Made by a program: the position numbers and the translations under genes
NCBI RefSeq assembly: GCF_947260015.1
Contig: NZ_CAMYOM010000008.1
Coordinates: forward strand, 1 to 64,000
DNA length: 64,000 nucleotides
Direction: 5' to 3'
DNA from: an uncultured Eudoraea sp.
GTDB lineage: Bacteria > Bacteroidota > Bacteroidia > Flavobacteriales > Flavobacteriaceae
Shown here: positions 18,721 through 23,405 of the stretch, piece by piece
Position numbering within the stretch: position 1 is the first letter of the stretch
Layout of the letters: each line of letters starts with the position of its first letter
Notes under the pieces: model-generated
Told to the model about the DNA's origin: nothing
The model's database searches: none
The model's input: the letters and a program-made list of their open reading frames with translations, nothing else

Positions 18721-20682
18721 TTACCCCACTTTAGAATTCAGTTCTTGTCTATACTTCTTTAATGCCAATAGTGAGAAATAGCGCTTGTAGTTTCTGTAAG
18801 AAACCATAGTTGTTTTATAAAATAATCCGCTCATTGGCTGCACCGGCCAGTCACCATCTTCAAGCTGTTGGTCAATAAGCCAGTCTATAGCTTTAATTAA
18901 GCGGGGATCTTCAGCATAACCTCCGTTTAATAATGCGAGTATGCACCAAGCTGTTTGATCAACTACACTGGCATCTGCCTGAATATATTCCCTCGCAAGG
19001 GCAGATTCCTGCGCTTCTCCCCAACCGCCATCTTCTTTTTGTTTGGACCATAGGTAGGTACATGCACTTTGTATTGCCTTATGGTCCTTACTCATTCCAT
19101 ACATGGTCAGTCCTTCTACAACAAAACAAATTCCATAGGTGAAACACAGGCCCCATAAGGCTTCCCAGCTTCCATCTTTATATTGGGAATTCAAAAGGTA
19201 TTTAACGGCACGTTCCATCGCTTTTTCCATTTCATTAGTAAACAAATGGGGTCTGCTTTGTTTTATTTGTACAAAACACTGAATAATACTACCCGTGCAT
19301 TCTACATAAGAATGATCAACCATAATATCAACAAATACATTTGCCGCATTAAACCACTCCAGCTTGGGGTTGCCAATGGCTTTGTCCACACTGGTCCATC
19401 CTCCGTCATCGCCTTGTAGTAGCATTATAAAACCTATGGCTTTTTTTATTCTTGCATCAGATAATAATTCGTCGCCTAAGCCTTCGGTTTCCAAAAGTGC
19501 TTTAATTGCTTCTGCAGTACAATCAGATACCACCCAGCCATTGTCCAGATAGCTAAAAGTCCAGCCACCTGCCCTGGGAAGACGGTGGTATTTAAAAGGG
19601 TTTTCCAGTTCCTTCATTACCTGGTTATCCAACAAGAATTTACGGGTCTTAAGGGCCAAAGGTTTTAACAATGGATCAGTACATTCTTTACCCATAGCCT
19701 GTAAATAGAATCCATTGTCCCAGGTATAAGTGTTAGTAAAGCCCTGCATCAATATTTCATCATCATTTTCCCATAAATATAGGGGTAGTTTTTCCCAGGA
19801 TTTTTTCAGTTTCTCCTGTTCCCCTCTAAAATGGTATATCAGGGTATTATAAACCGCATTTACGGGCGCTTGCCTTATAAAACTTGAATTTTCATCTTCA
19901 TATTCTATGTGTTCATATACTAGTGCCAGTGCTTTCTTTTTGATAAACTTGGGGATAATGGGATCAATTCTCTTGATCCACCACATAGAGATTTTAAATA
20001 TTCTGGTTTCAGGAAATATATTATCTGTGTCTGCAAAGGTCCCTCTATGTTTGGCAAAATTAATTTGCTCATAGGGTTGGAGGTATAATTCCTTCCTTAA
20101 TTGGAGTATTAGTTCATCTGGTTCTATGGATAGACGTTCACGATAGAAGTAACACATCGGTAAATAAATAATCCTTACATAACCTGAAATTTTACGGGGA
20201 TGAAACGGAAACCAGCTGGGTAACATATACAACTCAGGGGGCACAGGAGCAACCCCTTTATAAGAATACAAATTGAGAAATGACAGTATAAATTTGCACC
20301 AACTTGTAGAGTACAAGGGTCCTCCTTTCTCATGTATCCAATTTAATGCTTTTTTTAATTCGGATTCTGAGGCAGAATGACCCAAAAAGCGCAAAGCCAC
20401 ATAATTAATTACACTGGTAAAAATCGTACCCACTTTTGATTCCTGATGAATACCAAAACTGCCATCTGCCAATTGATGTCTTAGTATATACCTACTCATC
20501 TTGGTTTTTGTTACCATAGTCATAGGCTGCCCGCATATTCTCATGGCAAAAATGTATAATGGTAAAAGAAAAAAAGGACCGTCATACGGCACAGGCCAGG
20601 TTCCTTCTTCGGTTTGATTTGCAGCCATCCAACCGTAAACTTTTTGGATAGCCTGCTCAACTTTTTGCTTGGGATTGACCAT
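18721..20682 (-). CDS. osc: oxidosqualene cyclase (terpene cyclase/mutase family)
   Basis: VSDCTAE catalytic motif (19510..19524) in place of the squalene-hopene cyclase DxDD; N-terminal W...YDGPFFLLP; LPSWFPFHPRKISGYVRIIYLPMCYFYRER; DIMVDHSYVECTGSIIQCF; multiple QW repeats. Confidence 0.93.
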   Translation of the reverse strand: MVNPKQKVEQAIQKVYGWMAANQTEEGTWPVPYDGPFFLLPLYIFAMRICGQPMTMVTKTKMSRYILRHQLADGSFGIHQESKVGTIFTSVINYVALRFLGHSASESELKKALNWIHEKGGPLYSTSWCKFILSFLNLYSYKGVAPVPPELYMLPSWFPFHPRKISGYVRIIYLPMCYFYRERLSIEPDELILQLRKELYLQPYEQINFAKHRGTFADTDNIFPETRIFKISMWWIKRIDPIIPKFIKKKALALVYEHIEYEDENSSFIRQAPVNAVYNTLIYHFRGEQEKLKKSWEKLPLYLWENDDEILMQGFTNTYTWDNGFYLQAMGKECTDPLLKPLALKTRKFLLDNQVMKELENPFKYHRLPRAGGWTFSYLDNGWVVSDCTAEAIKALLETEGLGDELLSDARIKKAIGFIMLLQGDDGGWTSVDKAIGNPKLEWFNAANVFVDIMVDHSYVECTGSIIQCFVQIKQSRPHLFTNEMEKAMERAVKYLLNSQYKDGSWEALWGLCFTYGICFVVEGLTMYGMSKDHKAIQSACTYLWSKQKEDGGWGEAQESALAREYIQADASVVDQTAWCILALLNGGYAEDPRLIKAIDWLIDQQLEDGDWPVQPMSGLFYKTTMVSYRNYKRYFSLLALKKYRQELNSKVG

Positions 20683-20988
20683 TATCGGATAACAAATTTC
20701 AATTTATGTCATTTAAATCTTAGGCCTCTGTACAAGGATAATTAATTGTAAGTCGAAGGTTTCAAATTACCATGTAAATATAATTCAATTTAGTTTTGAA
20801 TAATTGCTTTTATGTATACTTATCCTACTTTGCAGAGAACAAAAACAAATGAAATTTTTAGGTTTTGCCCCAAAAGCGATATCTTTGTATGGTTTAATAT
20901 CAATGATTCTATCTTTTTTCCTTTACTCAAGTTATTTGAAAGGAAAACAAAAAGGGAAACTGAAGTTTAGGATATTTATAAAAGACAA
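20683..20988. promoter_or_regulatory. 306-bp divergent intergenic region between OSC and squalene monooxygenase
   Basis: only non-coding space between the divergent genes; must hold both promoters unless transcripts start elsewhere. Confidence 0.55.
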
Positions 20989-22380
20989 ATGTCAAACACC
21001 GGAGTAAATAAAGAAGTTGATGTCCTAATTGTTGGTGCTGGTATTGCCGGTGCAACTTTGGCTGCCAATTTGGCCAAAACGGGAAAAAACATTGTGGTTG
21101 TTGAAAGAGACTTAAGTGAAAGAGATGTCATCATAGGTGAATTGTTACAACCTGGAGGAGTTCAGAAGCTTGGTGAGATGGGCTTTACTTCTTTTATAGA
21201 CCAGATTGATGCCCAGCCTGTTTATGGTTATGACATTATTTTTGAAGGGCAGGATTATGTTATTCCTTATCCAAATAAAAACGGGGAACCTTCTGGATAT
21301 GGTTTTAGGAATGGGGCGTTTTTACAGAATATACGAAAACATGTATTGGCCCTTGATAATGTCCGGGTCATAGAAGGCGCAGTAACGGATTTAATTGATG
21401 AAAAGGACACAATAGTCGGAGCAAGTTTCAAACGTAAGGATGCCATTGAAGAAGAGCAGGTTTATGCAAAACTTACTGTTCTTACAGATGGACCTTTATC
21501 AACTTTTCGGGAAAAATTATCTAAGCCTGTTAATAAATTGAATGGCTATTTCTTAGGGTTACTTTTAAAAAATTGCGAATTACCCTATGCAAATCATGGG
21601 CATCTTGTTATGGGTGATCACCCCCCAATGGTTATATATCCTGTGACTTCTACATCATGGAGGGTATTAATAGATTTTAAAGGAGAAAAACCTCCGAGGA
21701 TGGGCAGGGATTTTAAGAAATTCCTTTTGGAAGAGTTTGAAAACGCAATACCCCAATCTGCTCGTAAAGCCTTTAAAGCAACGGTAGAAGAGGGTAAGTT
21801 CAAGACTTTTCCTAACCACAGACTTCCGGCTAACCCCATCAAAAAAGAGGGCGCTGTTATTTTAGGTGATGCATTAAATATGAGGCATCCTTTAACAGGC
21901 GGGGGAATGACAGCTGCTTTTAATGATGTACTAAGGTTGAGTAATAATCTTGCAAGTATTACGGATTTTAGTAACAAGAAACAAATAGGTAAAGCCATCC
22001 AAAAGTTCTATGAAACACGGCACTTAGGAACACAGACTACAAATATATTGGCAGACGGCCTTTATGGGGTTGTTTATAATCCAGATTTAAGAAAAGCATT
22101 TTTCGAATACGTTAGCAGGGGGGATAAATATGCTGAAGAAACCTGTTCCATCCTTGCCGGACTTAACAAGGATAAAAAACTGTTACTGAATCATTTTATT
22201 GGAATGGCGCGTTATGGTACACAAATGCGAATAACGAATTCTGAAAAATCAAAGGAAACAGTAACCCAATCTCTTACTATGGTAAAGGATGCTGTAGGTA
22301 TTATAACCCCATTACTTCTTTCAGAAAAACCGGATACCGGAAATAAATTGATGCTGGAAGCCTTAAATCGAATCATATAA
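20989..22380 (+). CDS. sqmo: squalene monooxygenase (squalene epoxidase), FAD-dependent
   Basis: GAGIAGATLAANLAKTG...VVVERD; VIIGELLQPGG; GDALNMRHPLTGGGMTAAFNDV: hallmark SQMO motifs. Confidence 0.93.
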   Translation: MSNTGVNKEVDVLIVGAGIAGATLAANLAKTGKNIVVVERDLSERDVIIGELLQPGGVQKLGEMGFTSFIDQIDAQPVYGYDIIFEGQDYVIPYPNKNGEPSGYGFRNGAFLQNIRKHVLALDNVRVIEGAVTDLIDEKDTIVGASFKRKDAIEEEQVYAKLTVLTDGPLSTFREKLSKPVNKLNGYFLGLLLKNCELPYANHGHLVMGDHPPMVIYPVTSTSWRVLIDFKGEKPPRMGRDFKKFLLEEFENAIPQSARKAFKATVEEGKFKTFPNHRLPANPIKKEGAVILGDALNMRHPLTGGGMTAAFNDVLRLSNNLASITDFSNKKQIGKAIQKFYETRHLGTQTTNILADGLYGVVYNPDLRKAFFEYVSRGDKYAEETCSILAGLNKDKKLLLNHFIGMARYGTQMRITNSEKSKETVTQSLTMVKDAVGIITPLLLSEKPDTGNKLMLEALNRII

Positions 22381-22487: not shown

Positions 22488-23405
22488 GTGAAACTTAGTT
22501 TAAGATTTAAAATGAGTAGAGTATTTAACTTTATAATCATTGTAATTAGAACCTTTGTTAAATGGGGAAAATACGAGCCACTTAGTAAATACCCGTTTGG
22601 ACATTTTTACTCCCCTATTGTATCCGGAGGTGAACTTATTGAACTTGAGGACCAGATATGGGAAGATGTAGCACAAGATTCTATTTTAGGAATAAATTTG
22701 AACCTTGAGAATCAATTTTTATTGCTAAAAGAATTTTCTAAATATTATCCTGAAATGCCTTTTAAGGATGAAAAATCGGATAAACATAGATATTGTTTTA
22801 ACAACGGAGCCTATGCATATACAGATGCAATAGTCCTTTATTCTTTTATCAGACATTTTAAACCTAAAAAAATTATAGAGATTGGATCCGGACATTCTTC
22901 AGCAGTAATGCTGGATACAAGAGAGACTTTCGTAAATGACATAAACCTTACATTTATTGAGCCCTACCCACAAAGGCTTTATCGTCTAATTAAAGATACT
23001 GACAGGGATAATTGTACAGTTTTGGATACAAAAGTTCAAAAGGTTGAATTAGAAAAATTTCGTGATTTAAAAAGTAATGACATTCTTTTTATTGATAGCA
23101 GCCATGTCTCAAAAACGGGAAGCGATGTTAATTATGAGATTTTTAAAATTTTACCCAGTCTAAACCCAGGTGTTATTATTCACTTTCACGATGTATTCTA
23201 TCCTTTTGAATATCCTAAAAGCTGGGTTTCTGAAGGACGCAATTGGAACGAAGACTATTTATTACGGGCCTTTTTAAGTTATAATAATAACTTTGAAATA
23301 TTACTCTTTTCAGATTACATTCATCAACATCATAAGACAGCTTTTAAGGAAATGCCGCTTGCCTATAAGAATACCGGAGGTAATCTTTGGATTAGAAAGA
23401 TGTAA
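22488..23405 (+). CDS. class I SAM-dependent methyltransferase (Methyltransf_24-like)
   Basis: KKIIEIGSGHSSAVMLDTRE, DILFIDSSHVSK, PGVIIHFHDVFYPFEYP. Confidence 0.75.
   Translation: MKLSLRFKMSRVFNFIIIVIRTFVKWGKYEPLSKYPFGHFYSPIVSGGELIELEDQIWEDVAQDSILGINLNLENQFLLLKEFSKYYPEMPFKDEKSDKHRYCFNNGAYAYTDAIVLYSFIRHFKPKKIIEIGSGHSSAVMLDTRETFVNDINLTFIEPYPQRLYRLIKDTDRDNCTVLDTKVQKVELEKFRDLKSNDILFIDSSHVSKTGSDVNYEIFKILPSLNPGVIIHFHDVFYPFEYPKSWVSEGRNWNEDYLLRAFLSYNNNFEILLFSDYIHQHHKTAFKEMPLAYKNTGGNLWIRKM

What the first reader, a model, noticed from the sequence alone, without database searches (positions are those of the whole stretch)
18721..22380. Divergent oxidosqualene cyclase / squalene monooxygenase pair: sterol-type triterpenol biosynthesis in a Bacteroidota
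Seen: the 653-aa cyclase has VSDCTAE (the OSC acid motif) rather than the SHC DxDD, plus other OSC signatures (YDGPFFLLP, YVRIIYLPMCYFY, VDHSYVECT). The divergent 463-aa flavoprotein carries squalene monooxygenase hallmarks (GELLQPGG, GDALNMRHPLTGGGMT). Established: SQMO plus OSC are the two committed enzymes that turn squalene into cyclic 3-hydroxy-triterpenols; they are rare in bacteria. Within Bacteroidetes, the marine flavobacterium Eudoraea adriatica is reported to use an OSC to make arborane-type triterpenols (eudoraenol, adriaticol). Inference: this window is from that lineage or a close relative and encodes the same or a related pathway.
Basis: partly seen in the sequence, partly recalled or inferred. 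Interest (0 to 1): 0.93.

Follow-up and report, generated by a model that had tools for sequence, protein, structure and literature searches.

The report
Arborane-type triterpenol genes of a Eudoraea
A marine Eudoraea bacterium carries the two adjacent genes (squalene epoxidase and oxidosqualene cyclase) that its relative Eudoraea adriatica is already known to have and to use for five-ringed, plant-like triterpenols; the finding is real, and it is an ordinary new member of a published case.

Summary
The 653-aa cyclase is an oxidosqualene cyclase (OSC): best solved relative human lanosterol synthase (E=5.6e-118), catalytic Asp-Cys pair present, no DxDD, and split from squalene-hopene cyclases at 100/100 support. 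The 463-aa flavoprotein is a squalene monooxygenase (Pfam SE 242 bits; best solved relative human squalene monooxygenase, E=2.3e-79). The genome is a Eudoraea, a different species from E. adriatica DSM 19308 (OSC 88%, SQMO 84% identical, same gene order). Nine of ten held Eudoraea genomes, and none of 70 other sampled relatives, carry the single-enzyme squalene synthase that would supply squalene. The cyclase keeps the OSC protonation site but has Eudoraea-specific pocket changes (W230S, C231G, H232Y, C233V, Y503V, human numbering), fixed in all seven Eudoraea copies read; His232 and Tyr503 are unchanged in all 50 other bacterial OSCs compared. Losing the His credited with stopping lanosterol synthase at four rings fits the published five-ring arborane product better than a sterol. 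Both genes are under strong purifying selection (dN/dS 0.03-0.08). Product chemistry is inferred, not shown here.

The parts
18721..20682 (-). oxidosqualene cyclase, predicted eudoraenol/arborinol-type synthase, 653 aa
   Evidence: ORF; TIGR01787 over cut-off; human LAS 5.6e-118; active-site residues; tree; dN/dS
20989..22380 (+). squalene monooxygenase (squalene epoxidase), 463 aa
   Evidence: ORF; PF08491 242.3 bits; human squalene monooxygenase 2.3e-79; orthologues in 7 of 9 other Eudoraea genomes; dN/dS
20683..20988 (.). 306-bp divergent intergenic region; a TAnnTTTG motif (the flavobacterial -7 element, from recall) lies 99-110 nt upstream of the SQMO start in all seven Eudoraea loci compared
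22488..23405 (+). Methyltransf_24 protein, 107 bp downstream of SQMO; role in the pathway not established: intact in four of seven other Eudoraea loci, a fragment in L005, absent from L004 and L037

Best explanation
The pair is the two-step oxidosqualene cyclisation module of a Eudoraea species. A single-enzyme squalene synthase encoded elsewhere in the genome makes squalene (inferred from family). The FAD enzyme epoxidises it to 2,3-oxidosqualene using O2 (inferred from family). The cyclase protonates the epoxide with the Asp of VSDC (Asp455 equivalent) and folds the chain chair-boat-chair as lanosterol synthases do. Because the His232 and Tyr503 that lie at the quenching end of the lanosterol synthase pocket are replaced by Tyr and Val, and the wall beside them reads Ser-Gly-Tyr-Val, the tetracyclic cation is not quenched and goes on to a fifth ring. 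It is then deprotonated to arborane-type 3-hydroxy-triterpenols, as published for E. adriatica (eudoraenol, adriaticol). Shown here: the genes, orthology, conserved catalytic residues, genus-fixed pocket substitutions and purifying selection. Inferred: the reactions, the product and any membrane role.
For: OSC 87-92% identical to the copies of its closest Eudoraea relatives, 88% to E. adriatica DSM 19308, 73% to G005. Same divergent gene order and neighbours. Asp455, Cys456, Cys533, Trp387, Trp581, Phe444 and Phe696 equivalents kept; W230S, C231G, H232Y, C233V, I335Q and Y503V fixed in all seven Eudoraea copies, while all 50 other bacterial OSCs keep His232 and Tyr503. 29 of 31 scored pocket positions identical to E. 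adriatica. His232 is credited with ending human catalysis at four rings, and plant pentacyclic OSCs have Tyr there (PMC6515059). TIGR01559 squalene synthase over cut-off in 9 of 10 Eudoraea genomes and in none of 70 other sampled relatives. Only one cyclase in the genome. For E. adriatica only SQMO and OSC are listed among sterol genes (PMC4919349). The arborane paper is confirmed by title in reference lists.
Against: No product data here. The arborane paper (Banta et al. 2017) is not held, so its diagnostic residues could not be checked; the named products rest on the finding's text, the cited title and my own recall. The 2016 paper labelled the Eudoraea enzymes lanosterol synthases by sequence. 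One Eudoraea genome, G002, rated 100% complete, lacks the pair.
Confidence: 0.8

Rival explanations
1. The cyclase is a lanosterol or parkeol-type (tetracyclic sterol) synthase and the organism makes simple sterols.
For: It groups with human LAS and Group-2-type Methylococcales OSCs (97/91 support) and was labelled LAS in 2016; Tyr98, Phe696, Val453 and Ile524 equivalents are as in human LAS.
Against: His232 and Tyr503, unchanged in human LAS and all 50 other bacterial OSCs compared, are both replaced; the only P450 in the genome has an AGHETT motif that does not look like CYP51 (judged from memory); the E. adriatica orthologue is reported to make arborane triterpenols.
Confidence: 0.07
2. The pair makes an arborane precursor, but the end product in this species is a further modified or different triterpenol from eudoraenol/adriaticol.
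For: A Methyltransf_24 gene follows SQMO here; two other Eudoraea loci have a short-chain dehydrogenase directly downstream of the OSC; in wheat a dehydrogenase oxidises the 3-alcohol of 19-hydroxy-isoarborinol (PMC9169793).
Against: Pocket positions nearly identical to E. adriatica (29 of 31); the methyltransferase is missing in L004 and L037, and the dehydrogenase is not next to the OSC in the window.
Confidence: 0.12
3. The cyclase is a divergent squalene-hopene cyclase and the flavoprotein an unrelated monooxygenase.
For: Both belong to larger superfamilies shared with SHC and UbiH-type enzymes.
Against: SHC model 268 bits against a cut-off of 431; no DxDD; split from SHC rows at 100/100; SE domain 242 bits.
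Confidence: 0.01

Closest known systems
Eudoraea adriatica DSM 19308 OSC (eudoraenol synthase, G504DRAFT_2316) with squalene monooxygenase (G504DRAFT_2315)
   Same: OSC 88% and SQMO 84% identical, same divergent order and neighbours, same pocket substitutions
   Different: Different species; 2 of 31 scored positions differ (535 A to G, 702 I to V); a few neighbouring genes gained or lost
Human lanosterol synthase (1w6k)
   Same: Full-length homology, Asp455-Cys456 and Cys533 protonation site, aromatic residues Trp387, Phe444, Trp581, Phe696
   Different: W230S, C231G, H232Y, C233V, Y503V in the Eudoraea pocket; the human product is a sterol
Plant pentacyclic triterpene synthases (beta-amyrin type; plant-like chain 8j5z)
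   Same: Tyr at the His232 position and Phe at 381/382
   Different: Eudoraea copies form their own clade, lack the Trp-Cys-Tyr-Cys context (Ser-Gly-Tyr-Val instead) and have Val where 8j5z has Trp at 503; resemblance is probably convergent
Group-2-type Methylococcales OSCs (L008, L096-L108)
   Same: Same broad clade in the tree; L008 is 34% identical to the window OSC
   Different: Keep His232 and Tyr503; 47-50% identical to human LAS

Membership tests
Oxidosqualene cyclase | VSDCTAE acid motif (Asp455-Cys456) and Cys533 equivalent | tested here: met
Oxidosqualene cyclase | Full-length match to the squalene/oxidosqualene cyclase model above cut-off, and grouping with OSCs apart from SHC | tested here: met
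   TIGR01787 525.7 vs 322.7 bits; 100/100 split from SHC rows
Bacterial OSC subfamily TIGR03463 | Score above 851 bits | tested here: not met
   550.7 bits; Methylococcales OSCs of the other group also score only 575-751, so the cut-off marks one subgroup, not OSCs at large
Squalene-hopene cyclase | DxDD motif and TIGR01507 above cut-off | tested here: not met
   VSDC instead of DxDD; 268 vs 431.1 bits
Squalene monooxygenase | Pfam SE domain, and best solved relative a squalene monooxygenase | tested here: met
   PF08491 242.3 bits; human squalene monooxygenase 6c6n 2.3e-79, next solved hit 5.9e-13
Bacterial arborinol (eudoraenol) synthase | Orthologue of the E. adriatica enzyme with the same pocket residues | tested here: met
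   88% identity, shared gene order, 29 of 31 positions
Bacterial arborinol (eudoraenol) synthase | The diagnostic residues defined experimentally by Banta et al. 2017 | not tested
   paper not held
Bacterial arborinol (eudoraenol) synthase | Arborane triterpenol product by GC-MS/NMR | not testable with these tools
   needs expression or lipid extraction
Sterol pathway beyond cyclisation | CYP51-type C14 demethylase in the genome | tested here: inconclusive
   one P450 only, beside ruvB, with an AGHETT motif unlike CYP51 by recall
Sterol pathway beyond cyclisation | C4-demethylation and C14-reduction genes | not tested

The most novel reading that the evidence does not exclude
Within Eudoraea the arborane module has been extended by species-specific tailoring genes (a short-chain dehydrogenase directly behind the OSC in two species, a methyltransferase behind SQMO in others including this window), giving a family of modified bacterial arboranes that could leave distinct molecular fossils.
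Probability: 0.12. Interest if true: 0.6.

Novelty: new member of a known kind. Interest (0 to 1): 0.35.

Why it matters
Arborane fossils in rocks older than flowering plants call for a microbial source, and E. adriatica is the reported bacterial producer (from recall of the 2017 work). Finding the same pair with the same unusual pocket, plus a squalene synthase that marks the genus, in most held Eudoraea genomes suggests that arborane synthesis is a genus trait under selection. The genus-fixed H232Y/Y503V signature is a simple sequence screen for other candidate arborinol synthases in metagenomes.

Tried and rejected
Squalene-hopene cyclase and unrelated-monooxygenase readings were rejected by models, motifs and tree. 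Two squalene synthase copies in the genome looked like a duplication, but one (contig C50) is 99% identical to that of G002 while the other (C73) is nearest G006, as the window OSC is; C50 is probably contamination and no duplication is claimed. Other OSC-bearing Bacteroidota were sought in 396 genomes of the phylum: four besides this one, all of the fused SQMO-OSC clade (one cut by a contig edge), with His232 intact. Absence of the pair in G002 was followed up: the whole 20-kb block is missing there, so true deletion and an assembly or binning gap cannot be told apart. Sigma-70-type promoter and terminator scans gave no more than shuffles. The key 2017 paper could not be read. No structure was predicted, because OSC and SHC share one fold and a model would not discriminate.

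Full report
Observation. The window holds two divergent ORFs exactly as reported: a 653-aa cyclase on the minus strand (18721-20682) and a 463-aa flavoprotein on the plus strand (20989-22380), 306 bp apart, with the quoted motifs present. The cyclase passes the general squalene/oxidosqualene cyclase model (525.7 bits, cut-off 322.7), falls well under the hopene cyclase cut-off (268 vs 431) and under the narrower TIGR03463 cut-off (551 vs 851). Its best solved relative is human lanosterol synthase, E=5.6e-118, well ahead of squalene-hopene cyclase at about 1e-44. The flavoprotein has the Pfam squalene epoxidase domain (242.3 bits), and its best solved relative is human squalene monooxygenase, E=2.3e-79, with the next hit at 5.9e-13.

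Lineage. The genome (G000, 3.42 Mb, 98 contigs) shares its genus with G003, whose 531,854-bp contig C4 has the length of the E. adriatica DSM 19308 contig NZ_KB907549.1 carrying an 88% identical OSC. One genome is held per species, so this is a different Eudoraea species; its nearest OSC is the 92% identical one of isolate 2-1786-n2 (G006/L004). Of nine other Eudoraea genomes, seven have the OSC; among 110 further relatives there are only two weak partial matches. The SQMO follows the same pattern: strong matches in the same seven, weak flavoprotein matches elsewhere. Gene order around the pair is shared, E. adriatica keeping nearly the same neighbours on both sides.

Substrate supply. The genome has a single-enzyme squalene synthase (TIGR01559, 444-449 bits, cut-off 286.75) rather than HpnC/HpnD. 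Among 80 relatives it occurs in 9 of 10 Eudoraea genomes (the exception is 76% complete) and in none of the other 70. Two copies are seen in G000, but the C50 copy is 99% identical to that of G002 while the C73 copy is nearest G006, like the window OSC; the two contigs end in a 413-bp stretch that is 93% identical. I take C50 as probable contamination (inference).

Active site. Sixty-two cyclases were aligned to human numbering. All Eudoraea copies keep Tyr98, Trp387, Phe444, Asp455, Cys456, Cys533 and Trp581 (and Phe696 where the sequence reaches that far). All seven replace W230 by S, C231 by G, H232 by Y, C233 by V, I335 by Q and Y503 by V. His232 and Tyr503 are kept by human LAS and by all 50 other bacterial OSCs; the plant-like chain 8j5z has Tyr and Trp there. 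A systematic scan found 14 sites that are invariant in Eudoraea, at least 95% another residue in the 52 other OSCs, and never shared; Y503V is among them. Against E. adriatica the window enzyme matches at 29 of the 31 positions scored. The literature read here credits His232 with deprotonating the cation and so ending human catalysis at four rings, and notes Tyr at that place in plant pentacyclic enzymes (PMC6515059). This gives a coherent mechanism for a fifth ring, but it is an inference.

Tree. In a 37-row maximum-likelihood tree the six Eudoraea copies form one clade (100/100) within the half that holds human LAS, the plant enzyme and Group-2-type Methylococcales OSCs (97/91), and all OSCs split from the SHC rows at 100/100. 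This agrees with the separate Group 2a of Wei et al. 2016 (PMC4919349). Myxobacterial OSCs could not be included, and the long human, plant and SHC branches make exact places unsure.

Selection and control. dN/dS of OSC (0.03-0.06) and SQMO (0.05-0.08) against four relatives is low, and somewhat lower than for the neighbouring methyltransferase and BNR-repeat genes (0.09-0.12). A TAnnTTTG element lies 99-110 nt upstream of the SQMO start in all seven loci compared; that this is the flavobacterial -7 motif is from recall.

Surroundings. The Methyltransf_24 gene behind SQMO and the DinB-like and BNR-repeat genes behind the OSC have no demonstrated role. The methyltransferase is missing from two relatives. 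Two relatives, L004 and L037, have a short-chain dehydrogenase directly behind the OSC; it is not there in the window. The only P450 in the genome lies beside a ruvB-like gene and does not look like CYP51.

Comparison and novelty. This is the E. adriatica pathway in another species of the genus: OSC and SQMO listed in 2016 (PMC4919349) and arborane triterpenols reported in 2017 (Banta et al., known here by title and citation only). Added here are conservation across the held genomes, the genus-restricted squalene synthase and the fixed pocket signature. They extend a known case and do not change its kind.

Noticed in passing
L051-L054 (G503, G360, G383, G413; Bacteroidota) and L094-L095 (G814, G694; found in the class of an alphaproteobacterial genome): The OSC is the C-terminal part of a single ORF of about 1,150 aa whose N-terminus carries a squalene-epoxidase/FAD domain (L052 is cut by a contig edge). 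'Fused SMO/OSC homologs' are already mentioned in PMC10070321, so this is known.
   Followed up: partly
L051, plus-strand open frame from 346, 351 aa: A protein that looks by eye like a sterol C-24 methyltransferase lies next to the fused SQMO-OSC in G503; not searched against families.
   Followed up: no
G000 contigs C50 and C73 (L045, L046): Two squalene synthases, each behind the same kind of small secreted protein; one is 99% identical to that of genome G002, suggesting a mixed assembly.
   Followed up: partly
G001 contigs C12 and C38 (L006, L003): Two full syntenic OSC/SQMO loci in one MAG, one of them with a frame break in the OSC; probably two species in one bin.
   Followed up: partly
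L004:12030-12923 and L037:9789-10652: Short-chain dehydrogenase directly downstream of the OSC in two Eudoraea species, a candidate 3-alcohol oxidase for arboranes.
   Followed up: partly
G002: A Eudoraea rated 100% complete that keeps squalene synthase but lacks SQMO, OSC and the surrounding 20 kb.
   Followed up: yes
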